Shown: positions 156 through 61,800 of the stretch, piece after piece
Layout: every line of letters starts with the position of its first letter
How positions within the stretch are numbered: position 1 is the first letter of the stretch
From: Amphibalanus amphitrite
Lineage: Eukaryota; Arthropoda; Thecostraca; Balanomorpha; Balanidae
Length of the DNA stretch: 64,000 nt
Assembly: GCF_019059575.1 (NCBI RefSeq)
Contig: NW_024881532.1
Span: forward strand, 1,550,001 to 1,614,000
Direction: 5' to 3'
Notes under the pieces: generated by a model
What the model was told of the DNA's origin: nothing
Seen by the model: the letters and a program-made list of their open reading frames with translations, nothing else
Databases searched by the model: none
Made by a program: the position numbers and the translations under genes

Positions 156-236
156 GCGGAGGGGGTGGCGGAAAGCAGACCCAGCGGGCCCGCGGACGTA
201 TCCTGCGCGCCAGCTCTTCCAGCGGAGCCAGAGGTG
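156..236 (+). repeat. 81-bp exact copy of the end of UBR5 exon 2
   Basis: Positions 156-236 are identical to 967-1047, which is the last 78 bases of the exon 870-1044 and the first bases of its donor site. The copy lies upstream of the exon at 356-569, so it is out of order relative to the transcript, and no acceptor or continuation of the coding frame is seen around it. It is either a recent local duplication or an assembly artefact. Confidence 0.9.
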
Positions 237-355
237 TTCATATGAAAAGGTCAATCTCCTTCTCGCGGCAGGCCAAAGAGCATGTTTTGCCTTCCTCCTG
301 ACTCATTTCCCGGATAAGTTGTTAACTCTGTCCTTCTTTCCCGCCCCGCTCGCAG

Positions 356-26685: not shown

Positions 26686-29600
26686 CTACTTGCTGACGTG
26701 CCGGTTGATGGCGGGCCGGCCGGCGCCGTGCGTGGCGCGGTCGCTGCCGGAGCGGCTGACGCGGGCCAGCGTGCCGGCCGGCGCGCTGTTGAGACGCTCC
26801 AGGTCGCGCACCAGCTGCGCAGAGCGGTCGGCGGCCGACGGCCGTTTGGCCTCCTCCGAGCTGAGGCTGGTGGAGCTGGCCACCGGGGAGACGGCGTCGT
26901 CGCAGCCGCCCTGCCGGCACCGGACCGCGGTCAGCGGAAACGGGCGGGCAATCGGGGCGGTACAGAGGCATCGCGTGGCACAGGGAACAGAAAGGGCCTC
27001 GGTACGGAGAAAATCGGGACGTCACACCACGGGTTGGGCCGCGCGTTGCATCGGGGTGGCTATCATGGAGGCGCACGCAGAAAAAGGGCACCGGTCGACA
27101 CACACAAGTCGCGCATAGTTTCGACGTAAATTCATCGGAACCTCGGCCTGATTAAACCCGCGCGGGGCTGGGGTCTCCAGCCGAACGCGCGGGGCTGCGG
27201 GGGGGGGGGGAAATTTTACCCCCCCCCCCCCTGTTATCTCCCGAACTAATGGTCCGATTTGGAAAAATCAAACGCCAATCGAAAGATCTCATCACGAACT
27301 ACTAAAAACATATACTTAATTTAACCCGCGCCCTGCTGGGGGGGGGGGGTGTTTGAACACCCCCTTGTGGTTTGTCGCGAATATCTCAAAAACGGCGACG
27401 CTCCGCGCCGCCGTTTTTGGTACACCTTATCATACATCAATTCTACACATGTTGTGAAAATTTCAGACCAAGGTCATTCAAGGTCAGGTCACCAGGTCAC
27501 TTGAAGTGACACCTCATAAAAAGTTTCAATGTCTGTCATAGCTACACCGAGTGACCGATCGCTTTGAAACTTTCAGCGATTGCTAAGAGCAATAGCATGT
27601 ACAAAATGTATATCTCAGAATTTCGATATCGATGACCTAAGGTCAGGTCAATTTTGCGACCTCCCCATTATAAGTCAATAGGAGAAAATTGAAATGCGCC
27701 TCTTTTGGACGAAAGACATTATAAACACTCCCAAACACCGAATTACAAGTGGTTTAGACACACTGAACATGAAAATGGTGTCCGTGACCCTTGTTTGTGC
27801 CCTGAGGTCATCTTAGGTCACGAATGGTATCTTAAAGTTTTTCGCAAATAACTTTTGATAGAGGCATGCTAGAGCGATGAAAACGCCTTGTATGTGTTCA
27901 GCTCGACGATACGGATCGATTGATATGCAACATGACCCTTCTCGGTCAGGTCATGACCTTGACCTGAGGTCAAATTTTCAAGTTGACCCTTCAAGGTCAA
28001 GTTATAGTTCAATCGATGCGTCTTGACGAGAGGAACACGATGCCGGTGAAAGTAAGCTCGTACAAGGCTTGGGTCAAAAGTTATTGCAGAAAAAACTGTT
28101 TCCGAAAAAATCGGCTATTTTTGCAGTTTTTGCCCCCTGCAGGCAAAACCGTTGACGTTAGGTCAAATCTGAGAGAATTACTCAGAAAGGGCGTTAATAG
28201 GGCTATCGAATGCACTTTTCCGCGGCGCTGTAGCTCTATTGGTTCCCGAGTTATGCGTTGGCTTCTTGGAAATTTTCGACATTCGACCTGGAAATCGGCG
28301 AAATTTTGCCTTCAATGACCTCTGGTGACCTGACCTTTGACCTGACCAAAAAAATGACCGAAGTGATTTCGTCATTATTTTTGACGCTCTTTCGAACGCC
28401 GCCTTCCGCGTATCGCTACGTGGCCCAGGAGCAGAGTTACAAGGGGGGGGGTGTTCAAACACCCCCCCCCCAGCAGGGCGTGGAAATCCAGGACCCCCAG
28501 CCGGGCGCGGGTTAAAGTTTGAGGTCAAGGTCAAGGTCAGGTAAAGGGTACAAATTGCAAGTTTCTACGGTATCGGCCTTGCACCGTAGTTGCCGAAGAA
28601 GGGAGTCATCGACTGAGACTGATTGCCCAAAACGTGTTCTTAGGCTACCAAGACAATATTCGTTGCATACAATATCATTCAGTGGTCAAGGTCAAGGTCA
28701 GGTCAGGTCAGGTCAGGTCACCAAAAAACAAAATATGGAAAAGGGCATGTGCGACACATGTTTTATGGGCCATTTTACTCATAGAATTCAATAGGCACAC
28801 TCAATAAGTGATATGGACCACCTCTGGATGAATTTCAGGTCGAGGTCAGGTCAAGTGAGGTCAAATTTTGAAGTTGGTTGTTAAGGCCTAAAAAGGTGTC
28901 GATCTGATGCAGTTTTTCACGGCGAATCGAATGGTGCTATTTTTGTTTCCGTACGAGGTCTAGAACTTCCAAAAAATCATTTTTAAAATTTTTGTGTGTC
29001 GTGACGTCATAGAATCTTGAATAACTCCCACATTTTTGAACCGATTCATCTAAAAATTGGTATGTAGGTGCACATAGACCACTTCTCTGACATATATTCC
29101 GGTTTTCTCGATACACTCAAAATTTTGGATTTTATAATTATTTTCCCAAAAAAGTCCGTTTTTTGAAAAAAAAATTTGGGCCAAAATCCAACATTTTCAA
29201 AAAACCGAGATAGCCATTGGATAGACAAAGTAGAATTACGTATAACCTTTTTTGTTGCGTCTTGATTCCTTTAAAAATGAAGATGTTAGCGGCGTTTGAA
29301 CTTTTGCCGTTTTTGAGGCGAAAATGTTAAATGGCGAACATGACGTCACTAAAACGTCAATTTCTCGAAAATTTTCCGATGGATTTCGCTCAAATTTTCA
29401 GGGAACGTGTCAAATTGATGTAAAAAAAGGTACTGAAAGTTTGGAGGCGCTGCGCGCCGCCGTTTTTGAGATATTGCAAAAATTCGCGAGGGGGGGGGGG
29501 TAAAATTTACCCCCCCAGCCCCGCGCGGGTTAAGTCCCGAAGGCCACAGAAAATGGATCTGGGATAAACGCCACCTGCCTCTGAACGCGCCTGAAGCAGC

Positions 29601-32600
29601 CACTGCGGAGCACTTCGCATTAATTATGGATACTTATGCTGTCCAATTCTCGGCGTAGGTATCACAACTCACAAGCATATAATGCCCATTCTAGCTTGAG
29701 CAGTGATAGCGAATCTACAACAGTGCGGCTGCGAAACATCCTTCATCGGCAGACTGTACCGCAAGACACCCATGCGTTCCGGCACAGTATAGCATTCAGA
29801 CAGACTTGCCGATGACAGACGGAAAGCGACGCATCATTTTACCCGATTAAATGGCAAGCAGATCATTCAGCAAGCTGTTAACTTGAATAAATAATCGATG
29901 CTGAGCAACAGGACAGGGCTATTATGGTCACGGCGGTGTGCAAAATGCCCGCGCCGGTGCCGGCACGAACCTACAACAGAAATGAAACGGATGCCGAATA
30001 TTGTGAGCGTATTCGCACAAACATAGGGCCGCATTCATTAATGAGCTTTGTTCCGTCTTTCAGCACGTTAAGTCCCTGGACTCCGCTTATCTGACCTGGC
30101 TTGAAGGGTCCGTCTCGGCCATCGATTCATTGTCGACTGTCACCGTTTTTGGCCTTCACCCAGATAGTTGGCCCAGACCCTGTCCCGTGACCTCAGCCAG
30201 AGAGGAGACCTTGCGCCGGACAGTGATGGCCCCATTTCCGACAGATTTTCACCGTCACCATCCCCTCGCCCCTCGCCCTCCCCCTACCGACAGTGACAGA
30301 CAAATGTGCCCACCAGTAAATATTAACAGGCTTAAGCTGTCACACCAAATGGTTTAGGTGTTCTGTCATATATAAAAAATGATGGCCCTGCTGCGAACAC
30401 TTCGAGCTCCTTGGCTAACATCAATCGATTCAGATATTATTAAACGAAAATGAATATCCCGGCTGAATGCAATGCAATAAAACGTTCAAATGGAGTTCAA
30501 ATGGATTACGATGTCGTAATGAGACACCTTAACACGCGCAGTGGAAGGGGGGGGGCGGATTTCGCCCACCCCTCCTGTTTTTTGCTAATAACTCGCGCCG
30601 CAAACATAATATTAATGTGAAATTTCGGCTACCTGTCCAGAATTGAATTGCGGATCTTCTCGTGCAAGAAATAAGAAAATCGGTTCGCAACTTTTCTAGT
30701 AATAGCGGTGTAAAGTCAAACATCCTGCCGCCGCGGCGGCGCGGCGGCGCGGCGGCCGGCGCTAGCCGTTACGCGCCGCCTGAATTGTAGACTGTGCCGG
30801 GGCGGGACGGTTCCGTCTTTACATCGCGCTCCTTACCGCTGATTATATTAGATTCGCGTCAAATTCGGTGAGAAGACTGAGAAATGTACAGGCAATCATA
30901 TGGTCAAAGAATTTTGAAAATCGGCTGGTAACAATTTGAGTTATGAGTGTGTAAACACAAAATTGTGATTGCCGCGTTTCCCGCGTCGGCCGATCCCGCT
31001 TCAACCGGCGACATCTTACCCTTAGCAAGCTTCTAACTGCCATATTTATTGTTGGATTATCTAGAAATTCACCATACATACTCACAAATGTTTGTTCTTT
31101 CGTATAGTGAAAGAAAAAAGAAAATCGGCCGGTAACTTTTTGCGTTATCGGCGTGTAAACGCGAAAAAGTCGCTAATATGGCAGATTTGACCACATTTGA
31201 CCTCATTTGACCTTGAAGATATTGACCTAGGGTCATGAAATTTACACACAACAGAGTTCCCCATGGCCCCCACCTACCCTTCAAATTTCGTCTTTCTAGC
31301 TCCAGTGGGAGCTGAGATCTTAGGGGGGGGGGGCGACATCCGCCCCCCCCCCTTCCACTGGGCGTAGTACTCGCAACCCTTCCACTGCGCGTGTTAATAT
31401 GTTTTCTTTGAGCTGTATCCTGTATCATCGGCTCCGGCTCAGCATCTAACTTCTAAAATGTTCACTTATCGAGTGAAAATAAATCAAAAGTTGCTTTACT
31501 TTTGAGACGCGATACCTACCTACTTCTGAAGAAATAAAAGGTTTACTTGAACACGAAACATCCCGGGCGAACTAACTACGTTCATTGGAAACCTTTGTGT
31601 TCCTCCGTCTCCTATAAACGTCTCGCTAAGGATCTCCTAATTTTGAGCTGCCATTTGAAGCCGGGAGCCGCCCCACTCGCCGCCCCCAGCCGATCCCGGC
31701 ATCTGCGTACGTCAGCCGTACCTTGTCTCTGACGGCGCTGGCGGCGGCGTCGCGTTCCTCCATGCTCTGCAGCTCGGAGACCAGCACCTGGACGTGGTCG
31801 AGCAGCTCGCGGTTGTGCAGCAGCAGCTGGTGGGTGCGCGCCTGCGCCTCCAGCCGGGCGGCCGTCTCGGCCTGCAGCTGGTCGCGAACCAGGTGCACCT
31901 GAGCCAGCGCCGCCTGGGTCTGCTGTTGCTGCTGCACCAGCCGCTCCCGCATCAGCTGAACGGCACACGGGACAGGGTACAGGCGTCAGCGATGGACGGA
32001 CACAGGGCATCAACGGCGGATGGGACACGGGCGCGGGCGTCATCGGTCAATGGTCAACGATCAACGACCGTCTGACAAGCAATGTCCCGTGGATGCCGGG
32101 CTATCAAAACGCTCTAATGTTCAAAAACAATGGCGTGGTGCCCCCAATAGCGTGAGGACGTGAGGAGAGCATGAACATTGACGTGAGGAGAACATTTACC
32201 TACCACCATCTTTATCAAAGCAAACTAGCGGGTGAAACCACGGCAGGATGTCCCTGCAGGGTGATTCCCAACCGTAAACTCCAGCTCGAAACGGCCAAAC
32301 AAGCAGTGCATCTGCGATTCCGGGCGGTGCAATCCCACCAAGACGTTGTGAGTCAGCCGGCGGCTGTTGCTAAGTTTTTCGCTAGCATTTTTGTCGTTAA
32401 AGAGTCGGCCCAATCCGTCACCTAGTTAGTCACACACCACGGGCCGTCCCGGAGGCAGTGGGGTGCCACCGAGTCCGCAGGTGTTTATTCCGGTGCGGCG
32501 CTGGGAAACCCACGATCTCAGCGTCGGTCTCCACCGGTCCCGGGACCCGGCGGAAGCTCACCGAGCGCGGCGGCGGCTCACCTGCAGCTGGTGATAGAGG

Positions 32601-35600
32601 GACGAGGAGCCGGCCAGCCGGTGAACGTCGTGCAGCTGCTCCGGCGCCGGCGCCGTCAGCGCGTCCGGCGACAGGGTGGCCGCGCGCCGGCCGTCCATCG
32701 GACTGGCCGGCACGCTCAGCGCCTCGAGCAGCATGTGCCGCCGCTCGGCAGCCATCTGCGGCAGGCCGCCCAGCGGCTCCAGAAGCCGCCGCTCTGCCGG
32801 CGAGCACGAGACGCGGTCGCGGCGCGTGGTGCGCCGTCCGTCCGGCGAGCGCGGCTGCTCGGTGGCGGCGCGCGGCCGCTCCGAGGGCGACTTGGGCGGC
32901 TTGCGCGTCTCGGTGGGCTCCGAGGCAGGGGCCGGCTCGGAGACGACGGGCTGCTCGCCCGACAGCGGCGATGGAGGAGTGTCCACGCTGGGCTGCTCTG
33001 ACGACGTGTCCGTGGGAGCTGGGGAGGTCAAATCAGGTCACATAAAAGGGTTTCCACTCAGTCGGCAGAAAAAAAACATCGGGACCGAGACATCAGTTCC
33101 CCTCCACTTACACTAGTAATCTGGTGCAACCGGTCCGCCAGTTCACTCGAGAGAGATATTATGTATACATGGATATCAATTACCTATTTCTGGTTAAAAG
33201 TGTCCCCCAACTGTGCGAATAAAGCTTATAATTTGCCGAGAACCGAGCTACGATAAGCGTTAGCTTTAGCTATCTTGAAAGCGATAATCTCGGCTCACAG
33301 GAGCCGCGAGCAGGTAAAGTCGGGTAATGACCTGGGTCCTTATCCCGGCCGGGCCCGGGGGGTAATCCCAACCACCGCAGCCCGGGGGGGGCGTTTTTCG
33401 CCCCCCTGTCTAACTCCGTAAATAAGGGAGCTACGGAAACAAAAGCGATACCAAACGAAAGGTCCTTACGAGACGATTCTAATGCACATAAAATTTTTGA
33501 CCTCAGGTCAATTTTCAAGGTCAGAGGTCAAGGTCAAAGGCCAAAACCAGCACATGTGTAGTGATCTCAAAGTAAGCCTTCTAGAGGACGGCAGGCTGCA
33601 TCAAACCGGCAAAATTGGGTGTCAAACGAAAGAAGAGAATCTGAGGATTCTGAAAATGTGCTCCAAATCAAAGGTCAAGGTCAAGGTCACGCTCAAAATT
33701 GACCTCAAACTTAGCACTTTTTCGCACATCTTGCGTGCTAACTTCCAAGATGTTTTGAAATGTTTTGAGGCTTATCAGTTCCCTATTTGTGGTTTATCTT
33801 ACGATACAAGGCTGATCAAAGGTCAAGGTCACAGAAGAGTATCCCTGCTAGAGGCTATTTCACTGATTCAAGTTAGTAATAATAAATACCTAAGACAATT
33901 TTGCTATCCGGAAGCTCTAAATGAAGGCTTAGAGGAAAATAGATGCCAGATTCGTGATCAGCGGGTACAAATCCATCATAAACGACCTTTCATGTGTCAG
34001 GGTCAACCAGACCCAGCCAGCCTTCCCAAATGGGGCCCATATGGGCCCCAAGTGGGCAGCAAACTGGGGCCCATCTGGGCTGCCCACTTGGGGCCCAGAT
34101 GAGTTTGTCATGGGCGTCCAACTGGGTCCCATATGGGCAGCCCAGATGGGCCCCATATGGGGCCCAGCCGGGGCACATATGGGTCCCACATGGGCTTTCC
34201 CAGCCGGGACCCACATGGGTATAATTGAAGAATCCCACATGGGGCCCATGTGGGTTCGAAATGGGACCCATATGGGGCCCAGCCGGGGCACATATGGGTC
34301 CCACATGGGCTTTCCCAGCCGGGACCCACATGGGTATAATTGAAAAATCCCACATGGGGCCCATGTGGGTTCGAAATGGGACCCATATGGGGCCCAGCCG
34401 GGGCACATATGGGTCCCACATGGGCTTTCCCAGCCGGGACCCACATGGGTATAAGCGAAAAATCCCACATGGGGCTCATGTGGGTTCGAAATGGGGCCCA
34501 TATGGGTAGCCCATCTGTAGCCCATGTCCCACTGGGCCCATCTTGCCCATGTTTACCCCATATGGGACCCACATGGGATGCCCATCTCCAGCCCACATGC
34601 GTTTGGCCCACCTGGCCCATTTTTATCCCATATGGGGCCCATATGGGTAGCCCATCTGTAGCCCATGTCCCACGTGAGCCCATCTGGCCCATGCTCACCC
34701 CATATGGGACCCACATGGGATGCCCATCTCCAGCCCACATGCGTTTGGCCCACCTGGCCCATTTTTATCCCATATGGGGCCCATATGGGTAGCCCATCTG
34801 TAGCCCATGTCCCACGTGGGCCCATCTGGCCCATGTTCACCGCATATGGGACCCACATGGGACGCCCATCTCCAGCCCACATGCGTTTGGCCCACCTGGC
34901 TCATTTCTATCCCATATGGGGCCCATATGGGTAGCCCATCTGTAGCCCATGTCCCACGTGGGCCCATCTGGCCCATGTTCACCGCATATGGGACCCACAT
35001 GGGACGCCCATCTCCAGCCCACATGCGTTTGGCCCACCTGGCTCATTTCTATCCCTTATGGGGCCCATATGGGTAGCCCATCTGTAGCCCATGTCCCACG
35101 TGGGCCCATCTGGGACCCACATGGGATGCCCATCTCCAGCCCACATGCGTTTGGCCCACCTGGCCCATTTTTATCTCACATGGGGCCCATATGGGTAGCC
35201 CATCTGTAGCCCATGTCCCACTGGGCCCATCTGGCCCATGTTTACCCCATATGGGACCCACATGGGATGCCCATCTCCAGCCCACATGCGTTTGGCCCAC
35301 CTGGCCCATTTTTATCCCATATGGGGCCCATATGGGTAGCCCATCTGTAGCCCATGTCCCACGTGGGCCCACCTGGCCCATGTTCACCCCATATGGGACC
35401 CACATGGGATGCCCATCTCCAGCCCACATGCGTTTGGCCCACCTGGCCCATTTTTATCCCATATGGGGCCCATGTGGGTAGCCCATCTGTAGCCCATGTC
35501 CCACGTGGGCCCATCTGGCCCATGTTCACCCCATATGGGACCCATGTGGGCATGTTTGCTGGGGCTCAGCCCATATGGGACCCAGATTTAGCCCAGATAA

Positions 35601-38600
35601 TAGCCCACATGTAGCCCATGCCCACTTAAGCCCAGATGCCCCACTTTCAGCCCATATGGGCCCCATTTGGGAAGGCTGGCTGGGGAGGTCATTCGAGGTC
35701 ACATGAGGTCAACATGAAACTCGACCTTTTCCGAACAAAATATATATCATTCGACGCGGCTTGACAAGACGAATGCGATGGTACCACTGCCGTAGCTCTA
35801 GGACCATTTTTGTCGAAGTTATTTGCGAAAAACTAAAACCACATTTCGGGGTCGTTGACCTGACCTCTGACCTCAGGTCACCAAAACTATTTTTCTATTT
35901 TTTTCTAGGTCAAACGCTACACAGCCGTGCTCGTAATTTGTCTTTATCTCTAAAACTCTATTTTTAGCAGCTATTTGAAGTTTGCGTCTGTGACGCCGAA
36001 GTTTGCCGTGCAGGGGTCTAGAAAAATGGACCTTGTGACGTCATCAAGGGGGCTAGGTCCAAATTTTTTACTTCAGAAGATGTCAAATTGATGGGAGAAA
36101 AGGTACTGAAAGTTTCGCCTTCCTATCCCTAAGCGTTCGGGAGTTATGGCAAATATTCGCCAGGGGGGGCGAAAAACGCCCCCCCCGGGCCCGCGAGGGT
36201 TATAAACACGTTAAAGCAATCCTGATACACAACGAACAAAAACTCGACATAAATTTGAAAAAGGCAATGGTAATTGCCTAATTGCCTTTAATTGCCTAAT
36301 TGCCTTTTTGGCATTTTCCTGCCAAATTGCCTTTTTGCCTGCCCAAATTGCCTGCCCGCCTGCCAAAAAGAGCTGGGCTACTGCGCGTATCAATGCACTT
36401 ACGTAACTCCTCGCTAGATGGCACTGGCTCCACACGCCTGAACTGATGCTGTGCCGCATGGCACAGAGCCGTAAACTGCCGACGGGCGACGATTCTACAT
36501 ACTCATGCGTGACAGACACATCGCAAGCCTTTTCTGCTTGTGCTATTTTAGCGCCGAAAGGTATAAGTTATTTTCCATTCCTATATTGCTGGATGCTGAG
36601 TCATCACTGGAAGGCTAGCTTTCAGGTAGGTATAAAGATTTCGTGTTTTTTCAGCGCAGGACAGGCTGGCGGTTCCCGTGGCGCTCGGCAGTGACAGCGG
36701 CAGTCGTGCCCGCTAACGGCCGCACTTCAAGCCAAGACAAATGCGCGAAAAGCGCGCCGACACGCATGATTTGTTGGCGGGATATTTCGGTCGGCAGCTG
36801 GCACTCGGCCAGAGTAACCAATTGCCTTCCCACTTAAAATGAGATGTGAGACGCGCTTTACTACCACCATAGATCTGGCCCGGCTGGCAGCCGGGTCCGA
36901 ACCCGAGACGGGCGCCGCGGCCGGCTGCAGTGTTCGCGGCGTCAGTTTGTCAAAACCAACGTAAACAGCGGCGGCCGTCGGCGGTTGTGCCGGCGGCGAG
37001 CGTCTGGAGGATGCCGCCGCGGGGTGCCAGCTCGCTCGGCTCGGCGCCTGGCAGCCGCCGCGCCGCCCACGCCAGCGCCACAGCCGCAACCGAGGCCTCC
37101 TCCAGTTCAGCCGCCGGAGGAGCGCGGCTGCGGGGAGCGGTACTCGGGTGCCGGGGCCTCCGGCGTGCTCTAGCACCCCTCCCCCCCCAACCGTCAGGTG
37201 ATGCCCATTGTATGACGTCACGGCGGGCCGAAATACCGTCCGAGAGGCGGCCGGCTGCCAAGGCGCGCCGCCGCCGCCCGGCTGGGAACGGAGCCGGGTG
37301 CGGACGGCACGACACCGGCGCCAGCCTCTGATGGATGGACGCAGAAACGCCGAATGAGCTTAATCGCCCGAAACTGCGCTCGAGCTGTCAGTCGGAACAA
37401 TAAATATATCAAACCGAGTTAAAAGCTAAGGGAGTTCGGATATTAATTACAACGGCTACCGACAAAAAAGTGCATAAACAACAAGTCATATGATGGTCAG
37501 CGAAAGACCGGCGACCGTCCAGCATGATTCCGGTAGCAACTTTCCTTTCACATGACATAACATGTAGTGCAGCAACTAAACCACATAATTTCGACCGTCT
37601 GTTATGTGCACAAGCACAGGCAGAACTATCAAATGAAGCGCAGTGACATGAGGCCATAATGACCATGTGACCCGCTGACCAGGCGGCAGTCACCCGCATA
37701 TGTTCGCGGACGGCTGGCGGCAGCGGTCGGCCAACTCCCACGCCTTGGGAGCGCGCCAGGGCGGCGGTCCACGCTCCGTCCCGCGTCCATCGGCCGTCTG
37801 ACACAGTATTGATAGGCGGCCAGCCGGAGTACACGGGACGGATACGTTAGGAGAAACGGCGACATGGGACAGATACAGAGATAGAGATATGACCTTCAGG
37901 TTGAGACGGATGGGAGAGTTCAGCACTCAGGCGATGACGGAGGAGGGACGTGATGAGAGCGAATCGGCCTTGTGTTGGCCGTGTTCCCGACACAACTCGA
38001 CTGAATTAATGGGCGTCATTCATAAAGTCTGCGGTAGGTAAAGCCCGCATATTGTCTGCACCACAAAACGGAGTCTGATGGCTATTTTTGGTTTCTTCGT
38101 CTACAGATGTGTGCTGATAAAAGATGTCAGAACATCAGTTAATATGGCAATGTTACGATATCCTACATATGAAGCAGTTTATTGTTTTTTATTTTGGTTC
38201 GGAGACACACCAAGAGCGCCAACATCCAGCGGCATCTGCTCAGAAGGCCGAGCGCCAGCCGAGCGGTCCGCCGCTGCCGGTTATTCTGCTCAGTGCTCGC
38301 TGCTCGGGCCCGCCGCCGGTGTGTCTGTCGCCGCGAAACGAGCGGCCCTCACCAGCACGGAGCGGTGCCAACATCAACCGGCCGGGCCCACCGGCGAGCA
38401 GTCAAACTCAGCCGGCCGCAGAGCCGATCGCGGCGGACCGGTCCCAGAGTCTTACATATGTACAGGGCTGTCCCACAGAGCCGATCGCGGCGGCCCGGTC
38501 TCAGAGCCGGTCGCGGCGGCCCGGTCTCGCGGAGCCAATCGTGGCGACCCGGTCCCGGAGTCCTACATGCTGGGCTATCCGCAGAGCCGATCGCGGCGGC

Positions 38601-41600
38601 CCGGCCCCAGAGCTGGTCCCGGCGGCCCGGTCCCAGAGTCCTACATACAGGCCCGGTCCCAGAGCCGATCGCGGCGGACCGGTCCCAGCAGAGCCGATCG
38701 CGGCGGCCCGGTCCCAGAGTTTTACATACAGGGCGGTCTCAGAGCCGATCGCGGCGGACCGGTCCCAGAGTTTTACATACAGGACTGTCCCAGAGCCGAT
38801 CGCCGCGGCCCGGTCCCAGGGTCCTGCCGCCGGTCCGACGGCCAACACATGGGACTCAGGACCCATCACCCAGCCTATGTCGGCACCGCAGCCGTGCTCC
38901 AGTCGACACACAGCAGCCGGTTCGGTCCGGAACACAGAGCCGGTTCGGTCCGGAACACAGAGCCGGTTCGGTCCGGAACACAGAGCCGGTTTGGTGCGGA
39001 AAACAGAACCGGTTTGGTCCGGCATATAGCCGCCATTCTAGTCCGGCCCGGCACACGCAGCCGTATTCTGCTAGGCGTACACAACCGTGCTTTGAGCGCA
39101 GACAGCATCGCGCTTTGGCACTTAGCTCAGTAAATCGGTGCCAAAGAACAAGTGCTCATTGGCTCCAGCGGTTCTTGCAAACTTTGTATATTTACACCGC
39201 TCAACTTGCTTCAAAAACATGTCAGTTTCATGTGTGTGCTTCCCATACAAGCAACAGGCGTATATCATCCGAGTCGTGTGTCTGTCACAACTGAACACAT
39301 CTTATCTTGATCTTGTGTGTGACCCACTGTTATTTCACCTGAGACCAATGTCAGCGCAGAGCGGCAGTATTTTGACCGCAGCATAAGCACCTGCTAGCTG
39401 ATCTCGGCGTCGGCGCCGTCTGGGACCTGACCCAAGCGGCTTGTGTTGGCCGCTGCCGAGTCTCGGCGGTCACGGTCACACGTGGCTGGGCCTGACACGA
39501 TGGGTTTACACTGACGGCGAGTGGCGAGCGGTGAGCCACCGGCCCCGGCTGCCCGGGCGATGGGTGTAGGGGTAGGTGTGCACTGTGCAGTGTGCAGCGC
39601 AAGCCTTCCCAGTTGTCTCGCCCACCGGTCAACAAGACGGTGATGTCACGGTGATTTACCGCTCAATGCACAGCTGTAATACCGACCACTCTCGCGAGGG
39701 TCAGCTAATGCGGTCATAGCCGTTTAATCACGTCTTGAAAGCAGTACATATAATCGAACTGCTGGCTATTCAATCCACGTGCACGGTGAGAAGCGTTTGG
39801 ACTCCCCGTCTAAGTTTTATTTTTTTATAAAACCTATCTTAAAGCGGCAGTAGAAACGTCAGGCTATATGCTTAAAATCTTCAACGATTTTATGATCAAC
39901 GGTTTGACGAAACGCAATTTAACTCTCTAACTTGTCACATGTGCATTAATTTTTTGCGTTGGTCGGCCACACTGTCTGCATGTGCGAAGCAGAGTCCGTT
40001 TTCGCTGCATCTTGGGATAAAAACGACATCGTACTCAGTGCTCGCGTCGTTAGCTCATCGCGCTCATCGCACAGTGTCGTTTCATTGGAGTTGCTTGTTG
40101 TTAGACCTAGTTTCAAAGAAGTACATCTTAACCCGCGCCGGGCCGGTGCTCTGAGATTCCGCGCCGGGCCGGGGGGGGGGGGTGTCTGAACACCCCCCCC
40201 CCCCTTCTAACTCGGCTCCTGGGCCACGTAGCGACACGCGGTAAGCGGCAATCGAAAGAACGTCCAAAATAAGGACGAAAACACTGGGTCATTTTTGGGG
40301 TCAGGTCAAAGGTCAGGTCACCAGAGGTCACCAAAGGTCAAATGCCCACTATTTCAACATTTTGGAAACTGCCAATGGCTATCTCGGGAACCGATAAAGC
40401 TACAGCGCCGCGGAAAAGCGCATTCGATAGCCCTTTTACAGAACTTTCTGAGTAATGTTCTCAGATTTGACCTCAGGTCAACGGTTTAGCCTCCAGAGGG
40501 CAAAAACTCCAAAAATAGCCGTTTTTACGAAAAACGTTTTTTCGGCAATAACTTTTGACTCAAAAGAGCCACGACATTACTTTTGCCACCATCGTGTTCC
40601 TCTCGTCGAGACGCGTCGAATGAACTATAATTTGACCTTGAAAGGTCAACTTGAAAATTTGACCTCAGGCCAAGGTCATGACCTGACCGGAAAAGGTCAT
40701 GTTGCATATCAGTCGATCCGCAACGTCGAGCCGAACACATCTAAGGCGTTTTCAGCGCTCTAGCTCGTCTCTATCAGAAGTTATTAGCGAAAAACTGTTA
40801 GATTCTGTTCGTGACCTGAGATGACCTCGGGGACATAACGAGGGGTCACAGTTGCCATTTTCCGGTTCAGTGTATCCATTTTACCTATATCTCGATGTTT
40901 GAGAGTGTCTAGAATAGCGTTCGTGCAAAACAGACGCTTTTCAATTTTCTCCCATTTTCTATAATGGGCAGGTCGCAAAATTGACCTAACCTTAGGTCAC
41001 CGATATCAAAATTCCGAGATATACATTTTATAGATACTGTTGCTCTAATCAATCGCTGAAAGTTTCAAGGAAATCGATCAATCGGTGTAGCTATGACGAG
41101 CATTCTTATTTTTTTCTGAGGTGAGGTCACTTAGCGTGACCTGGTGACCTGACCTAAGGTGACCTGGGTCTGAAATTTTCACAACATGTGCGGAAAAGAT
41201 GCACCAACAGGTGTGCCAAAAACCGCAGGGGGGGTGTTCAAACACCCCCCCCCCCCGCCCGGCGCGGGTTAACAGAGTTGAAAAAAAAAATATATAAAAT
41301 TAAGGGACAGCCTCAGGTCATTGAGCCCAGTCTCGGTAAAGAGGTGTTTTATTTGTAAACTAACTATCAGTGTCATTAATAAAAACAGCCTGACATTTGC
41401 TGGGCCAAATGGACGTTGAACGGCCCCTTTCCAAATTCCACTATCAGAAGCCTTTTATAAGGAGCATCATCGTCTCTCGCTGCGCTCAAGCCGCTCAGTG
41501 CCCTGTCGGCCTTCTAAAAATGGCGTCGGGCCGTTTAAAACTCATAATCCATAACGCTCTCCGGTCACTTTATTCGTATGTATTATTGACATTTAAATAT

Positions 41601-44600: not shown

Positions 44601-47600
44601 ACCAATCAGCTTATCTGACACAATCCGAGTCTGTCTTCTGAACGCTGATTGGCTTGAGTGTGACGTCATCGCTATGCCATCATACAGTAGGTGCCGTAGA
44701 GAGTATCAACATAGTACCAATATGTTAAATAGTTTTAAATACTTTTTCGCGAATTATGCACTTCTGGCACCAGTTTTAAAAAGAAAATGAAAAATAATAA
44801 TGTCAAAATGAAAAACAACGATATCTTCATATTTCACGAAGGTGGCCCTTTTCCTTTAAACGATTGAACAAGACAAGTAGACCCCTATTAAAGCAACGCT
44901 AAAATATGCCAGGGAAATAGTAGAGGATAACGGCATAAAATGATTAAATCGCTAATAAACAGAAACATCTCTTTAACGTCTCGTCAAACAGCTAACGATA
45001 AAAATTCTACCCGCTGCGATTCGATATATAATTTGTCTATTGTCGCAGTTCAGCGCAAAGCCCTGTATTATCGCGGCAAGATGAAACGGTCACTCGCCGA
45101 AGCGCCGAAGCAACTACGGTTGTGCTGGCAGAACCAGGGAGCGACTGTCTGGACCGGCGGAGACGACACTACACCAATATAATACGCAAACCCAAGAAAT
45201 GAAATTATCGTGCCTTATTTGCCTAAATGAAAAACACTGCCACCAGCTTATCTGATTCCGCTTATACGAGTAACTATTTGGGGCTGTTTGTCGAGGCAGT
45301 TAACACTACCACAGATCTGGTGGAAGATATAACGCTCTTCAAACTCAAAGATAAAGCGATCCATGGTTCATGTCCGCCAGCTTCAACCAAATCAAATTCA
45401 AATAAACTCAACTCGGCGCTGAGAGAAGTGTTCCAGAAGTTGAACGGCAGAACAAACCACTGGATTGAGATCCAGATGAAGATCATATACACAACTGTGG
45501 GTCCAAATAGCCTGAGGACTCGATCGTGATGACCATAATTTAACTGTAATTTCCAATTTAGTCGGAAAATTGACGCCTTAAAATAAGTGATATAAGCGAC
45601 AGACATTTGAGAACCATTATTCTAAGATAGACGCGCTGGCTGGGAAGCGGACAAATCGTCGATACCAAAAGATCGTACTCACTGGAAATAGACTACTTGT
45701 CGTCGGCCGTCAGACTTTCCGCCATGCTGACGGGAGGGAAGGTATATACAGCCCAGCCTCACCTCTAGACAGACATCCTCCAGGCTCGCCGCGCCCACCA
45801 CCGCGTCGTTCGCGATCACATCGAGGAAGTGCTGCTCGTCGGCGGCGGTGGCGGCGGCGGTGCGGCGCGCCGGCGACGGCGGCGTCTCAGCCCGCCACCC
45901 GTCCGCCTCCGGTCGCGGCTTGATGATGGAGCGGTCGGCACGGCCGTCGGTCCGCTCCGAAGGCTCGCGCACTTGCCGGTACTTGTCACGACCGACGATC
46001 TCCGGGTCCCGGAAGGAGAGCTTCTTGCGCGGCCGCTGCCGCTCGCCGGCGGGCTTAGCGACCTCCGGCTCGGGGACCATGTTGAGCGTCATGCCGTCTC
46101 CGATGACGGTCCGGCTGGCTGTCTCCAGCATAGGGGGCACGCCGGAGGCGGCGGCGGCGGCGGCGCTCGGCGGTGGCACCACGTCACTGCTCGCGCGCGG
46201 CGACACACCGTGCGGACATGGCCGAGACGCACCCGCTGCGGCCGGCCGTCCGCCGACGCCTACCGCCGCGCCGCACCGCCAACAGGTGGCGGCGGCGGCA
46301 GCTGGAGCTCCGCCAGCCAGCCGCGTCACGGTCAGAGGCCCGCCGACGCTGCCGCTCGCGCCGGACGCCATCGCCCAACGCTCTGTCGTCAATTCGAGAC
46401 TGGATGACGTCTGGACTTAATGTGGCATTTCATTATTCTTGAATTTGTAAGTACGATTCCGCAAATGTTTTTCCGATATTTTAGCTTTCACTGTGTTAAG
46501 CCGGAGCTTCAGACACGAACTGCATTTTCAGGTCAGGTCAGGCCAGGTCACTGACTCACGACGCCATAAGTGAGCCTCTGCACCGTCAACTTCGCCACAC
46601 TCTCAGTGGCAGGTAGGGAGATGAACTTACAAGATTTAGCAGCAATCCCAGCCCTCATAAGCAGTACATCTGATTTTCCATTACTGTCGCCTGAAGTCAG
46701 GTCAGCTACGTGACCTCACCATCTCATTCTCTTACACAGTTTTGCTCACCATTAAGGTATTTCAATAAAAACCGAGCCACTTCCTCTGGCTCCTTGACCG
46801 TACTTCAAAGGCCACCAGTTGATCTAAGACCTTAGACTCGAGTATCGGTCGCTCCGTCTCGTATAGCGGCGCACACACTGACTTTTCCGCCTGGTTCTAG
46901 CTAAATTCCAAGGGACGAAGGAAGGTCAACCTCCCACGGCCGTGGCTTGGGAAGAAAACCGATACCGATAGGTCCCGCGAGGGTACCGCGATAGGTATGT
47001 ACCGATAGGGAAATGTGAGGACATGTAAGCGAGCTTTGAAATAATATAATATGATACTGAGTGGAGCTTTTCCAGTGACGTTGGTGGGGCAAAGAGTCGT
47101 CAAAACCACAATGCCCGACTCAGTTTGTCAACTTGAATAACCCGCGCCCTGCTGGGGGGGGGGGGGGGTGTTTGAACACCCCCCCTTGTGGTTTTTCGCG
47201 AATATCTCAAAAACGGCGGCGCGGAGCGCCGCCGTTTTTGGTACACCTTATCATACATCAATTCTACACATGTTGTGAAAATGTCAGACCAAGGTCATTC
47301 AAGGTCAGGTCACCAGGTCACTTGAAGTGACCTCACCTCATAAAAAGTTTCGATGTCTGTCATAGCTACACCGAGTGACCGATTGCTTTGAAACTTTCAG
47401 CGATTGCTAAGAGCAATAGCATGTACAAAATGTATATCTCAGAATTTTGATATCGATGACCTAAGGTCAGGTCAATTTTGCGACCTCCCCATTATAAGTC
47501 AATGGGAGAAAACTGAAATGCGCCTCTTTTGGACGAAAGACATTATAAACACTCCCAAACACTGAATTACAAGTGGTTTAGACACACTGAACATGAAAAT

Positions 47601-50600
47601 GGTGTCCGTGACCCCTGTTTATGCCCTGAGGTCATCTTAGGTCACGAATGGTATCTAACAGTTTTTCGCAAATAACTTTTGATAGAAGCATGCTAGAGCG
47701 ATGAAAACGCCTTAGATGTGTTCAGCTCGACGATACGGATCGACTGATATGCAACATGACCCTTTCCGGTCAGGTCATGACCTTGACCTGAGGTCAAATT
47801 TTCAAGTTGACCTTTCAAGGTCAAGTTATAGTTCATTCGATGCGTCTTGACGAGAGGAACACGATGCCGGTAAAAGTAAGCTCGTACAAGGCTTGGGTCA
47901 AAAGTTATTGCAAAAAAACTGTTTCCAAAAAAATCGGCTATTTTTGCAGTTTTTGCCCCCTGCAGGCAAAACCGTTGACGTTAGGTCAAATCTGAGAAAA
48001 TTACTCAGAAAGGGCGTTAATAGGGCTATCGAATGCGCTTTTCTGCGGCGCTGTAGCTCTATTGGTTCCCGAGTTATGCGTTGGCTTCTTGGAAATTGTC
48101 GACATTCGACCTGGAAATCGGCGAAATTTTGCCTTCAATGACCTCTGGTGACCTGACCTTTGACCTGACCAAAAAATTGACCGAAGTGATTTCCTCATTA
48201 TTTTTGACGCTCTTTCGAACGCCGCCTTCCGCGTATCGCTACGTGGCCCAGGAGCCGAGTTAGAAGGGAGGGGGGTGTTCAAACACCCCCCCCCAGCAGG
48301 GCGTGGAAATCCAGGACCCCCAGCCGGGCGCGGGATAAAATGCTAAACTAATTGGTGGGGCAAAGATTCGTCAAACCCACAATGTCCGACTCTGTTTGTC
48401 AACTCGAATAAAGTGCTAAAATAAAGAAAAACCTATTATCACAGAGATAATATTTTGCATTACACTGACATTCCAAAGCTCGTCAATGCGAAAATACAAA
48501 GTCCTACAGGGTCTTTCATAATGAATGTTACTTTTGAACATTTAGTTAGGAGCTCTTAATTTATCACTTCCGCGTGAATTTTATATGCGTATTGTTGCAA
48601 ATTGATTAGGGTTTTGTCCCATAAAATAGAAAATTCACAACGCCAATTTTCCTTCACGGAAAAGCAGAGTATGTCGACACCACTAAAACGCATTACGGAT
48701 TACGGTCGACGGACAAGTCTTCATCCATTGGCTCTCCCCTGGGTCAACACGGAACGGGGTGGCTTACCTCAGGCTGCTCAAGGAATGCTTCTGCCTCAGG
48801 TCAGGGAAAAGGTTCAAAGAGACGGCCTGTGGTTCCAGCAGGATGGCGCCACAGTGCACACCACGGCAGCTGTTGCGCCAGTGGCTGATCGAGAATTTCG
48901 AAGGGCGCGTTATCAGCCGCCTCACCGACCGACCATGGCCACCACGGAGTCCTGACCTCTCCCCGCTGGACTACTGGTTTTGGGGAGTCGCATTGGCAGA
49001 TCTGAGACAAAAAACTCCTGCAGCCATCCACTGCGAACCACAGTGGAGAGGTTTGCTGGAAGCCTGGACCCAGACGTTGCGAGGCGCGGGGCGCGACACC
49101 TTCGTCAGAGGGCCGAAACCTGTGCCTTAATTAAGGGCGATACAGTGGAAAATTCCTGAGGAGCATTAAAATGAAAGTTGTGTGTGCAAAAACGCTAATG
49201 TGTTTCTGTTTCATGTGATGGTACATATTACATGAGGAATATATATGTCCTGAGAAATAGCTCTTTCAAAAGTAACATTCATTATGAAAGACCCTGAATT
49301 ACGTGTGTAGTTACGTGTGTGAATTACGTGTGTGTGTAGAAACGAGCTAAAGTTGGTGGAGCAAAATGCTTATTGGTGGGACAAAATTGCAAGCTGGTGG
49401 GTCAGCCGCCCCACCAACTGTATAGGATGCTCCACCCGGCACCCCTGTTATATGCATTTTTACGTAGTTCTATTTGTTCACGAGTAAGGTATTCTACCGA
49501 TTCTTTTGTCAAAACTTAAGCAAATATTTAATAGGAAAATTTGACCTTCAAAGACCGTAGCACATTATATAAAATTACTGTATTTTTTCTAAATAATTTC
49601 CACAATTTCTTAACTTCTTCACTGCTTGTTGTTACGCGGCCTAGGAGTCGAGCTCAACTCTTCAGAGAACGGAAAACTCAGGCATATAAATGAAAGTATA
49701 TCACTGTTATGTTTTACGTTTTAAAATCCCAGGGCGTCAGTTCACCAGAATAGTACGGGCGGCGATAGTACTTGCACAAGCGCCAACTCCTTGTCTATTC
49801 TGAGTCACCCCGTATCTCGGCGCTCATATTTATATATCCTGGTCGTCTGATATGAGTAATCCGCACGTGAGCCGAGCGGGAGCAGCTGCTCGTCGGTCCG
49901 GCAGGAGGGGCGCCGACACGACAATCCCGCCCCGTCGGCGGCGGTGTTTCGCTGCCTGCCAAAGGCGGAGCTGGCGCCGCAGCACACACCTGGATCGCAC
50001 CGCCGCGCCGGCCGCCAACCCCAGCAACCAGCGATTCCGGGTTTAGCCGTCGCTGGTAAAAATACAGGCGCTCCGTACCGACCGGTCTCACACAGGTCTC
50101 CGTCGGTGCTCACCGAAAAATGCTCTTTGTGCTGGGGCAGGCCTTCGATCAGCAAGGCCTTTGTTATGCGTCTTGTATCTTATTATAAGGATAAGTATAT
50201 ATTCTGGCACCAGGGTTTTCAAATATCACCTTTTGCTGGCGCTGTCAAGTCGTGGTTTGCTGAATAAGTGAACGACAGATAAGATGCATCGAAATTATTA
50301 CAACTTCCGAGTACTTCATACGGGATTCGCGCCAGGTGCGACATTCGCTGGAATGTTTGATGTTTCATTGGCCGTAAGTATTGGTCCCTGTTTTGTTGTT
50401 GCAATTGCCCTATATCAAAGAATTTAATATGACAATATTAAAAGAAAGCATTACGTGTAATACTTCAAGCAACATTTATATAAACATCAACCTAACGATT
50501 CACGTGAGCTCAGAGCCCGTAGCAAACCGTTGACGCTACCATTTGCTTTGTCGCTCGATCACGCCAGGGTCCTCTGTCAAAATAATCGTCTCAGTCCAAG

Positions 50601-59149: not shown

Positions 59150-59480
59150 GGAGTCGGCGTCCGGCTGCCGCGGCCCGGGTCACACGGCGTCCGCGTCTCT
59201 CGCCGGCCGGTGCACGCTCACAGACCGGTGGTTTCGCGCCGCCGGCTGGTGGCCGCCACCGGGCCCGCCTGCGCCGAGCGCGCCGCCACTTCTGGCGCGG
59301 CTGCGGCGGCTGGCGGCGCGCGGACGGCCCGGCCGCCGGGAGCGACGCTCGACGACGACCGTGGCCGGCGCACACCCATCACGGCACATCAGCCGGCCGG
59401 CCGGGCCTGTCAGCCGGCCGGCCTAATGGACGCGCCCTGGACACCGCCCCCGTCCCCCAGTGCGACGGAAATATGTTGAA
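58690..59480 (-). promoter_or_regulatory. NOS1AP: CpG-rich island around the NOS1AP first exon
   Basis: This block is far richer in GC and CpG than its flanks and surrounds the first coding exon (start codon at 59149, context CTCCATGGAG). No TATA box is evident just upstream. It is the likely promoter and 5' untranslated region. Confidence 0.5.
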
Positions 59481-60773: not shown

Positions 60774-61800
60774 TTAGCCCGCGCCCCGTTGGGGTCTGCC
60801 GAGCAACGCGCCCTGCTGGGGGGGGGGGGGGGTGCAATTTGCCCCCCTCCCCTAAGATCTCGAGAACCACGCAACATAGCGACAAGCAGCAAGCGGCCTT
60901 AAATACCTTGTGACCCAATTTCATTGACCTAGGTCAAACCGATCACGTCACAGGTCAGGTCAAATATCGAATTTTCACCGTTTACAGGCATTTCAAGAAA
61001 TGCGTTGTAAAATCGAGTAAAATGCATTTCATTGAAAATCATCGATGGGGTATTGTTCGTCAAACACATATTTTGCTATTTGAGGTCACTGATACCAGGT
61101 CAGGTCACAGAGGTCAGGTCACTGAGGGTCACAGACTCACAAATGAAAAAATCATGTGATGCATGTTTTATGGTCCATTTTATATGTCAAATGCGATTAT
61201 GTGGGTCAGGCAGCCTTTGGGGTCAGTTAAGATTGTGTTCTGGTGAAGGTCAGGTCAAGGTCAGGTCAAGGTCAGGTCAAGGTCAGGTCAAATTAGGTCA
61301 AATTTCAAAGTTGACATTTTTGCATAAATTGGGTATCGATTCGATGCAGCTCGTCACGGGGAGTTCAATGGTGGTCTTTGTTTTGCGCTACGTGCTCTAG
61401 AATCGCCAAAAGGCAAAAATTGAGTTAAAAAATTTGACGTCATCAATTTTGAACAGTTCTTTTGCTATAACTTGGCCAAAAATAGAGGTATCGCTCTAAA
61501 AATTGGTATGTAGATAGAAGAGCGCAGGTACTATCACATCATTTTCCGTTTTTTGAAATGTAAAAAACTTTTGGGATTTTTTTGTTTTTCTAAAAAAAAA
61601 AACTTTTTTTATTTTAGGGGGTCAAGATCAAAACACTTTGAAAATCCGAGATAGTAGTTTTGTAGCCACGTCTTTCCTCTACATGACCATATAAAGAACT
61701 TTGAAGTTGCTTAGTAACTGTAGCTTTGGTGAGCGTTTCAAGATTTCATGTTTTTTGTTCATTTTTGCTCGAACATGACCTCAATTTGACCTCAATAACT
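60774..61800. mobile_element. TTAA-type element copy G, right end lost
   Basis: The left end CCCGCGCCCCGTTGGGG (60778) and the hairpin GGGGTGCAATTTGCCCCCC (about 60830-60848) follow the family plan. The interior matches the right part of copy A (GCATGTTTTATGG.CCATTTTA words at 28757 and 61160) and has repeated AGGTCAAGGTCAGGTCA at 61250-61300 plus TGACGTCA at 61435. I do not find a matching right end. Confidence 0.65.

What the first reader, a model, noticed from the sequence alone, without database searches (positions are those of the whole stretch)
27152..61800. TTAA-targeting MITE family that carries dense AGGTCA nuclear-receptor half sites
At least seven copies (27152-29533, 27321-28515, 30529-31397, 33340-36203, 40128-41272, 47137-48338, 60774-61800) share TTAA-like flanks and CCCGCGC/GCGCGGG-type ends, and most have interiors packed with AGGTCA/TGACCT. 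Hand counts are about 19, 22 and 21 in copies B, F and E (~1.2 kb each), against well under one expected by chance. Many are arranged as AGGTCAAGGTCA, AGGTCAGGTCA or TCAAGGTCA, the forms bound by nuclear receptors such as FTZ-F1 and RXR/EcR types. The family could spread hormone-responsive sites or be regulated by them. Binding is inference; density and architecture are seen.
Basis: partly seen in the sequence, partly recalled or inferred. Interest (0 to 1): 0.85.

Follow-up and report, generated by a model that had tools for sequence, protein, structure and literature searches.

The report
Mobile DNA packed with receptor half-sites
A very abundant kind of short mobile DNA in an animal genome carries regularly spaced clusters of the six-letter word that hormone (nuclear) receptors bind, and that word has been kept far better than the DNA around it as the mobile elements diverged, so it probably helps the elements to spread.

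Summary
Seven TTAA elements without long reading frames carry 3-22 AGGTCA each, above the maximum of 300 dinucleotide shuffles for every copy; eight other TTAA elements examined do not. In the 807-Mb genome TTAACCCGCGC occurs 46,791 times (control 142) and AGGTCA-N4-AGGTCA 150,840 times (control 532).

(2) Half-sites have grammar: start spacings 5, 6 and 10 (DR4) are preferred and most point inward from the ends. (3) Clusters are phased about every 168 bp, eightfold over the troughs genome-wide.

Best reading: piggyBac-like MITEs whose mobile lineages were selected to keep docking sites for an AGGTCA-binding protein, probably a nuclear-receptor dimer. A transposon-encoded binder is a close rival. 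FTZ-F1-type extended sites are not favoured. There are no binding data. One coding piggyBac locus with half-sites upstream of its start codon is a lead to the partner, unresolved.

The parts
27152..29533 (.). Copy A, outer TTAA element (about 1.19 kb without B), termini TTAAACCCGCGCGGGG.../...CCGCGCGGGTTAA; 12 AGGTCA, all on the + strand
27321..28515 (-). Copy B, F-type element nested in A at TTAA; 19 half-sites
   Evidence: 96% identical to F
30529..31397 (.). Copy C, TTAA element with CACGCGCAGTGG ends; only 3 half-sites, toward the right end, two of them a DR4
33340..36203 (.). Copy D, outer element with TTAT target site, interrupted by 34012-35684; 19 half-sites in the outer parts
40128..41272 (+). 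Copy E, complete element, TTAA, 22 half-sites in six clusters
40303..40340 (.). E cluster 1, five AGGTCA pointing inward, includes two DR4
40468..40480 (.). E cluster 2, TGACCT-N-AGGTCA (ER1)
40633..40699 (.). E cluster 3, central mixed-orientation cluster of six
40812..40827 (.). E cluster 4, DR4 on the minus strand
40982..40999 (.). E cluster 5, two half-sites of opposite orientation
41124..41165 (.). E cluster 6, five sites, four pointing inward from the right end
40173..40202 (.). E left subterminal G-run/C-run hairpin
   Evidence: folded as DNA, z -4.7 for the 78-nt end
41228..41251 (.). E right subterminal hairpin
   Evidence: z -2.9 for the 58-nt end
47137..48338 (-). Copy F, complete element with ATAA target site, 21 half-sites
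60774..61800 (.). Copy G, left end TTAG|CCCGCGCC; 20 half-sites; the right terminus is not at 61800 and was not found

Best explanation
These are non-autonomous, piggyBac-like (TTAA) elements of about 0.9-1.4 kb. Each complete element has terminal inverted repeats with G/C hairpins beside them. The interior carries clusters of the nuclear-receptor half-site AGGTCA, phased at about 168 bp, mostly pointing inward, with preferred pair spacings including DR4. Shown: the anatomy, the abundance, the grammar, and the much slower divergence of the hexamer than of other bases between subfamilies. Inferred: the lineages that kept transposing were those that kept the half-sites, because a host nuclear receptor binds them, most likely as a DR4-type heterodimer such as EcR-RXR. 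One such receptor platform per nucleosome-sized interval would keep the element open in cells where transposition is inherited, and so accessible to a piggyBac-type transposase supplied in trans. Spread of potential hormone-responsive sites to host genes would be a by-product.
For: Density and controls: 6 of 7 reader copies have 10-20 half-sites per kb and C has 3.5; 8 control TTAA elements have 0-4 each, none above its shuffle maximum. Constraint: E against F, 5 of 139 motif bases differ against 141 of 797 other non-CpG bases (Fisher p 3e-6); nested L019 element against E, 12 of 141 against 288 of 779 (p 6e-13); F against the L024 element, 17 of 129 against 265 of 801 (p 2e-6); CCCTATT pair, 19 of 125 against 163 of 624 (p 0.009). 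Conservation is 97-100% at the six positions and 79-99% beside them. Circular shifts reaching the observed value: 0/1105, 0/1135, 0/1135, 0/1162 and, in the fifth pair, 2/952. Grammar: distinct contexts DR4 22 against DR3 1 and DR6 1, with 26 different spacers among 42 DR4 pairs; genome-wide DR4 150,840 against DR3 14,700. GGGTCA, which still fits the RGGTCA half-site, is the second most enriched of 18 one-base neighbours. Phasing. The genome encodes nuclear receptors: 77 zf-C4 exon matches, including NR5-type and NR2C-type DNA-binding domains. EcR-USP can act through DR4 (PMC5494300, passages). Lead: two near-identical coding piggyBac loci have four half-sites in the 0.66 kb before the presumed start codon, one group about 490-510 bp and one about 320 bp upstream of it.
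Against: No binding, expression, chromatin or transposition data. Spacings 5 (AGGTCAGGTCA, 28 contexts) and 6 (13) are about as frequent as DR4, and spacing 5 is not a receptor-dimer site that I know of (recalled). In the paper read, inverted repeats work too and IR0 was the best element for Drosophila EcR-USP, yet IR0 and IR1 are rare here (1 and 3 contexts). Inward orientation also suits a transposon-encoded binder. EcR and RXR themselves were not identified here. AGTTCA, common in natural receptor sites (recalled), is hardly enriched (1.55x), while ACGTCA, no receptor site, is the most enriched neighbour (7.6x). The subfamilies share ancestry, so spacing, phase and orientation counts are not independent. 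Copies within a subfamily also show fewer motif changes (6/430 against 90/3327, p 0.14), so selection after insertion is not excluded.
Confidence: 0.45

Rival explanations
1. AGGTCA is the recognition word of a transposon-encoded protein: the transposase's DNA-binding domain or an accessory anti-silencing factor. The clusters are then subterminal or internal binding arrays needed for mobilisation, as in VANDAL/VANC elements or other transposons with subterminal repeats.
For: Inward orientation 107 against 34; where an end has a near cluster its outermost site lies 107-190 bp in. Constraint on mobile lineages. Avid short-motif arrays are a known transposon device (PMC5735166 and PMC11707139, passages read). 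Spacings 5 and 10 suit a multi-domain binder on the helix. A coding piggyBac locus (C1173) is followed by a 343-bp stretch 88% identical to a CCCTCG element, hairpin, half-sites and TTAA included, which may be its own end.
Against: Three complete coding piggyBac elements have only 0, 1 and 4 half-sites, although none has CCCGCGC ends. Sites lie through the whole interior, and three of 20 element ends have no cluster near them (left ends of L027_a and C, right end of A). The word and the DR4 spacing are those of nuclear receptors. Equal-scoring zf-C4 matches come mostly in pairs, not in transposon-like numbers. The near-identical C42 copy does not share the sequence after C1173's coding part, so that end may belong to a neighbour.
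Confidence: 0.33
2. Hitchhiking and mutation bias: an ancestral element happened to hold AGGTCA tandem repeats, which multiply by slippage and travel with the family; no function.
For: Pentamer and hexamer tandem runs and a 152-bp satellite exist; the subfamilies share terminal ancestry; AGGTCA lacks CpG and so may mutate slowly.
Against: Other non-CpG bases change 1.7-5 times faster. Words with the same letters are kept no better than average between E and F (74/179 against 892/2135), though somewhat better in the more diverged nested-L019/E pair (60/188 against 468/2102), where AGGTCA is 30/38. Runs are almost all exactly two copies (53 of 55 pentamer runs, 16 of 18 hexamer runs) and DR4 spacers are diverse.
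Confidence: 0.1
3. Host exaptation: inserted copies are kept as hormone-response enhancers or architectural sites of the host, and purifying selection on individual insertions preserves AGGTCA.
For: Within-subfamily motif changes are about half the rate elsewhere (6/430 against 90/3327), not significant.
Against: The contrast is stronger between subfamilies than within them; termini number in the tens of thousands, too many for most copies to be host-selected.
Confidence: 0.1

Closest known systems
CMITE elements of Acropora corals (PMC2872659; parts 1-3 of 4 read)
   Same: TTAA target sites, several families with different terminal repeats, interior features kept between families better than the ends, tandem arrays, presumed piggyBac mobilisation
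   Different: CMITEs are about 100 bp with one conserved 75-bp block. Here elements are about 1 kb, the interior diverges, and scattered hexamers plus their phase are what stays. The CMITE 60-bp consensus printed in the paper holds no AGGTCA.
VANDAL transposons and VANC anti-silencing proteins of Arabidopsis (PMC5735166; abstract and passages)
   Same: Short motifs repeated in non-coding transposon DNA, often in tandem repeats, recognised by a sequence-specific protein that helps the element
   Different: VANDALs encode the binder and its targets vary considerably between related elements. Here the elements have no long frames and the motif is constant across diverged subfamilies.
Alu-borne DR2 retinoic acid response elements (PMC1785376; abstract and passages)
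   Same: A repeat family seeds a genome with nuclear-receptor direct repeats
   Different: Alu DR2 sites arose largely by CpG deamination, few of them in potentially mobile AluY copies. Human consensus DR4 total 12,376 in that paper's table, against 150,840 exact AGGTCA-N4-AGGTCA here. Here sites are multiple per element, phased and constrained.
NR5A2 binding to SINE B1 in mouse embryos (PMC11102866; abstract and passages)
   Same: An orphan nuclear receptor with pioneer activity targets its motif in a mobile repeat at zygotic genome activation
   Different: NR5A2 binds the extended TCAAGG(C/T)CA site as a monomer. Here no 5-prime extension is conserved and pair spacing is preferred.
piggyBac / piggyBat transposon ends (PMC11707139; abstract and passages)
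   Same: TTAA, end motifs read by a zinc-binding C-terminal transposase domain, ends that differ from each other
   Different: The motifs in the passages read lie in ends of about 150-210 bp; no AGGTCA arrays appear in those passages.

Membership tests
piggyBac/TTAA MITE | TTAA target-site duplication | tested here: met
   TTAA in window copies A, B, C and E and in two nested L019 elements; TTAT in D, ATAA in F, CTAG in one L019 copy
piggyBac/TTAA MITE | terminal motif CC[C/T]T | tested here: inconclusive
   CCCTCGCC and CCCTATTCC subfamilies fit; the dominant CCCGCGC type begins CCC but lacks the T; C begins CACG
piggyBac/TTAA MITE | asymmetric ends (terminal sequence repeated inside one end only); a piggyBac feature rather than a strict definition | tested here: inconclusive
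   At offset 26-27, 6 of 10 elements repeat 10-14 of 14 letters at one end; two more have 8 and 9, which is the level reached at random offsets of other ends; L028 has 11 at offset 36; L019_nest only 7
piggyBac/TTAA MITE | no transposase coding capacity | tested here: met
   longest stop-to-stop frame 67-203 aa in 14 elements; not searched against Pfam
piggyBac/TTAA MITE | autonomous piggyBac with the same termini in the genome | tested here: inconclusive
   116 piggyBac-domain matches scored. In 8 loci and 10 flank pairs the ends seen are CCCATTARNG, CCCAGG, CCCCCC, CCCTCGCACG or none, never CCCGCGC as the element's own end. C1173 has a CCCTCG-type end beside it, ownership unresolved
Nuclear-receptor response element (DR4) | two RGGTCA half-sites, direct repeat, 4-bp free spacer | tested here: met
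   150,840 genome-wide, 33 of the first 100 listed being overlapping triplets; 26 different spacers in 42 sample pairs
Nuclear-receptor response element (DR4) | bound by a receptor in vitro or in vivo | not testable with these tools
   needs binding data
FTZ-F1/NR5 or ERR monomer site | conserved TCA extension 5-prime of AGGTCA | tested here: not met
   positions -3 to -1 conserved 79-90%, like other flanking positions, against 97-100% in the hexamer; TCA at 22 of 405 non-tandem sites
VANC-type anti-silencing target | element-encoded binding protein | tested here: inconclusive
   no long frame in the 14 elements; the autonomous partner is not established

The most novel reading that the evidence does not exclude
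A transposon superfamily has evolved into a nucleosome-phased nuclear-receptor platform: about one AGGTCA cluster per nucleosome-sized step, kept by selection on the transposon, so that a host hormone receptor gates its mobility. Transposition would then be tied to a hormone pulse or to embryonic receptor activity, and the genome holds on the order of 100,000 DR4 sites as a result.
Probability: 0.3. Interest if true: 0.87.

Novelty: new variant of a known kind. Interest (0 to 1): 0.74.

Why it matters
Repeats that carry receptor sites are often read as accidents later used by the host. Here the sequence record suggests that the transposon itself was selected to keep the sites, with six-base boundaries, preferred pair spacing and a nucleosome-sized phase, in a family with tens of thousands of exact termini. 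That makes it directly testable whether a hormone receptor controls a DNA transposon's mobility, and whether transposons evolve chromatin platforms. It also warns that a receptor-motif scan or ChIP study in this animal would be dominated by these elements.

Tried and rejected
FTZ-F1/NR5-type extended sites were tested and not favoured. Microsatellite slippage as the whole cause was tested and disfavoured. Coding piggyBac elements as carriers of the arrays: three complete ones have 0, 1 and 4 half-sites. On checking my calls again I found that I had passed over half-sites in flanks of other coding loci. L047 and L055 (C42 and C1173, 99% identical over 851 bp) have four each upstream of a presumed start codon. 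L045/L046 have 2 and 3, and L052 has 2; L046 and L052 resemble MITE interiors (72-74% over 69-133 bp). L056 ends in a MITE-like CCCTCG terminus with a CCCGCGC element starting at the same TTAA. L048, the matching flank of C42, shows no similarity to L056, so whether this end belongs to the coding element is open. I left the odds as they were, since the lead serves both main readings.

A shared ~168-bp sequence module for every interval: in leave-one-group-out profiles 12 of 13 groups have a hit at E 1e-3 or better (reversed controls 0.069 or worse), in the bounded elements mostly over the terminal interval; L001/L010 gave only 0.054. Nucleosome signal in base composition: GC is 0.51 at cluster centres and 0.38-0.48 over most of the surrounding interval (0.57 in one edge bin), with no clear pattern. 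Organism: I suspect a barnacle (52.3% GC in a barnacle genome, PMC8917513, passages read; window GC 53%; two NR5-type genes); this is a guess, meant to match the assembly, gave nothing usable. Rfam search of the window: no hit. Literature searches. In their listings (5-15 papers shown per search, not all hits) I saw no paper on AGGTCA arrays in TTAA MITEs; the library lacks most subscription journals.

Rows dropped before counts: sample L021 (AGGTCA satellite) was left out (spacing table only). The 23 segments and 17 were chosen by me, mostly one per subfamily; some are related, and W_C contributes no interval. Each comparison outside the within-subfamily set uses one pair; CpG bases and G/C runs were excluded there. 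Several control elements are short (505-946 bp), so their zeros alone mean little.
Full report
WHAT WAS CHECKED. The window is G000:C35:1550001-1614000 of an 807.55-Mb assembly in 2,644 contigs. It is an animal genome: 77 exon matches to the nuclear-receptor DNA-binding domain, and window frames with MLLE+HECT (UBR5-like, name recalled) and fibrinogen-C domains. The species is not given; a barnacle is my guess only.

THE OBSERVATION. All seven listed copies have more AGGTCA/TGACCT than the maximum of 300 dinucleotide-preserving shuffles: 12, 19, 3, 19, 22, 21 and 20. The window holds 159 such sites, 116 of them within the 9.5 kb of these copies. Eight other TTAA elements from the same genome (four short ones with AGGGAC ends, three complete piggyBac coding elements and one unclassified 2.3-kb element, L024 5462-7805) hold 0, 0, 0, 0, then 0, 1, 4, then 0, none above its own shuffle maximum. 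Genome-wide, AGGTCAAGGTCA occurs 79,534 times against 193 for the reversed pattern.

ANATOMY. The elements are 0.87-1.4 kb with no long frames (longest stop-to-stop 67-203 aa in 14 elements), flanked by TTAA or one-letter variants (CTAG once). The exact terminus TTAACCCGCGC occurs 46,791 times (control 142), equivalent to some 23,000 two-ended copies if both ends are exact, haplotype duplicates included. For copy E, all 40 scored matches (itself included) cover at least 1,090 of its 1,145 bases at 95-100% identity, out of 6,024 first-look candidates, which suggests recent activity. In 6 of 10 elements one end clearly repeats its terminal 14-mer at offset 26-27, an asymmetry like that of piggyBac ends. 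Beside both ends of E and the tested end of F lies a G-run/C-run hairpin. Termini CCCGCGC, CCCTCGCC, CCCTATTCC and CACGCGC mark subfamilies. They are related: in leave-one-out profiles with AGGTCA masked, 12 of 13 groups have a best hit between E 1e-3 and 1e-13, L001/L010 only 0.054, best reversed control 0.069. Their full lengths are 58-84% alike in the pairs aligned, or show only short matches.

CONSTRAINT ON THE HEXAMER. E and F types are 83% identical; AGGTCA occurrences are kept in 38 of 43 cases against 892 of 2,135 other hexamers, and anagrams of AGGTCA fare no better than average (74 of 179). In the nested-L019/E pair, at 65% identity, it is 30 of 38 against 468 of 2,102, anagrams 60 of 188. 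Position by position, the six motif bases are conserved 97-100% between E and F types while flanking positions are 79-99%, mostly 81-95%; in the more diverged comparison the motif is 90-95% and the flanks 65-90%; between near-identical copies the motif (96-100%) does not stand out from the flanks (90-100%) (sites of both members counted). Without CpG sites and G/C runs, 5 of 139 motif bases differ against 141 of 797 (E/F), 12 of 141 against 288 of 779 (nested L019/E), 17 of 129 against 265 of 801 (F/L024), and more weakly 19 of 125 against 163 of 624 (two CCCTATT elements). No circular shift of the motif positions reaches the observed conservation in four of five pairs, and 2 of 952 do in the fifth. 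Within subfamilies the difference is 6 of 430 against 90 of 3,327, p 0.14. This fits selection on the transposing lineage better than selection by the host on each insertion, but does not exclude the latter. Limits: few copies, one aligner, and at 60-65% identity the alignment itself may favour matching motifs; the 83% comparison is little affected.

GRAMMAR. In the window plus 19 of the 20 random samples (L021 left out; 500 sites), neighbouring half-sites in direct orientation fall at gap -1 (59 pairs, 28 distinct contexts), 0 (21, 13) and 4 (38, 22); gaps 1, 2, 3, 5, 6, 7, 8, 9 and 10 have 6, 3, 1, 6, 1, 2, 3, 4 and 4 contexts; ER1 has 8, IR0 1 and IR1 3. DR4 spacers are diverse: 26 kinds in 42 pairs, 4 pairs being GGTC. 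Genome-wide DR4 is 150,840, DR3 14,700 and DR6 50,593; 33 of the 100 DR4 rows listed have a GGTC spacer, that is, an overlapping triplet, and most listed DR6 rows are likewise composite. Direct runs are nearly always exactly two units (53 of 55 pentamer runs, 16 of 18 hexamer runs), unlike a microsatellite. Half-sites point inward from the nearer end 107 times and outward 34 times in ten elements, and none lies in the first 100 bp. Among the 18 one-base neighbours, ACGTCA (7.6x) and GGGTCA (4.3x) are most enriched in 17 element segments, AGGTCA itself 39x.

PHASE. In 23 element segments the distances between half-sites form sharp peaks near 165, 330, 505 and 670 bp with near-empty troughs; 79 adjacent cluster distances have median 170, and 63 of them lie between 137 and 214. 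Genome-wide, same-strand pairs with gap 147-177 number 584,354, against 72,788 for gap 75-105 and 72,036 for 228-258 (reversed controls 7,227, 8,839 and 6,473). A 152-bp AGGTCA satellite in inverted halves (L021) keeps a similar period. The step is nucleosome-sized; that a nucleosome sits between clusters is inference, and base composition gives no clear support. Inheritance from an ancestral tandem array may explain part or all of the phase.

A LEAD TO THE PARTNER. Two near-identical coding piggyBac loci (C42 and C1173) have AGGTCA, TGACCT, TGACCT and AGGTCA in the 0.66 kb before a presumed start codon, which follows a TATA-like stretch. About 0.5-1 kb after the transposase domain of C1173 lies a CCCTCG terminus whose last 343 bp are 88% identical to a CCCTCG MITE, with hairpin and half-sites. 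So this is either the autonomous partner or a MITE inserted beside it.

MECHANISM. Shown: the anatomy, abundance, constraint and grammar. Inferred: a protein reading AGGTCA, with preferred pair spacings including 10 bp, raises the element's chance of transposing. Nuclear receptors are the best-known proteins with this word and spacing, and DR4 is a working ecdysone-receptor element in yeast reporter assays, though not the only one there (PMC5494300, passages). The genome has receptors to choose from, but EcR and RXR were not individually identified. The absence of a conserved 5-prime extension argues against monomer readers such as FTZ-F1. A transposon-encoded reader remains nearly as likely, given inward orientation and the precedent of VANC (PMC5735166, passages).

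KNOWN RELATIVES AND NOVELTY. CMITEs of corals are the nearest described elements that I found: TTAA, varied ends, conserved interior, tandem arrays (PMC2872659, parts 1-3 of 4 read). Alu DR2 is the nearest case of receptor sites spread by repeats (PMC1785376, abstract and passages). I saw no paper describing AGGTCA-phased TTAA elements in the listings; that is a limited library and I saw only the listed part. I call it a new variant of a known kind.

Noticed in passing
window 34012-35684: Inverted-repeat element inside copy D, packed with CCCANNTGGG palindromes (E-box core CANNTG, recalled) in 115-bp and 142-bp units. A line (C1:479079) shows what looks like the empty site, suggesting a 2-bp (GA) duplication. 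A second mobile element dense in one different factor-like word.
   Followed up: partly
L021:304-7944: AGGTCA satellite of about 152-bp units in two inverted halves, 247 half-sites, of unclear origin.
   Followed up: partly
L055/L047:156-350 and L056:277-619: Coding piggyBac loci with half-sites before the presumed transposase start codon; one is followed by a CCCTCG MITE-type end that abuts a CCCGCGC element at the same TTAA.
   Followed up: partly
window and L017-L036 without L021: TGACGTCA (CRE-like palindrome, name recalled) occurs 94 times counted on both strands (47 places) in about 254 kb, where uniform base use would give about 8; ACGTCA is 7.6x enriched in the AGGTCA elements.
   Followed up: no
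G000:C1:1237935-1238515: An array of AGGTCANNNN units with largely a 10-bp period and variable spacers, visible in the listing.
   Followed up: no
L004-L007: Two distinct NR5-type receptor DNA-binding domains: L004 = L005, and L006 close to them with L007 as its likely allele (equal score). This would fit the barnacle genome duplication named in PMC11331182 (seen only in the search listing) if the species is a barnacle.
   Followed up: no
L019:3750-4924: A CCCGCGC element that appears to be inserted with CTAG instead of TTAA target duplication.
   Followed up: no
L010:475-4083: A CCCATTARCG piggyBac appears to sit inside an AGGTCA element: sequence on both sides matches the same L027 element segment.
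   Followed up: no
window 38417-39022: GC-rich minisatellite with CAGAGCCGATCGCGGCGGCCCGGTCC-like units.
   Followed up: no
G000: 116 scored piggyBac-domain matches, most of them without stops inside the match and several groups with equal scores: apparently recently active coding elements.
   Followed up: partly
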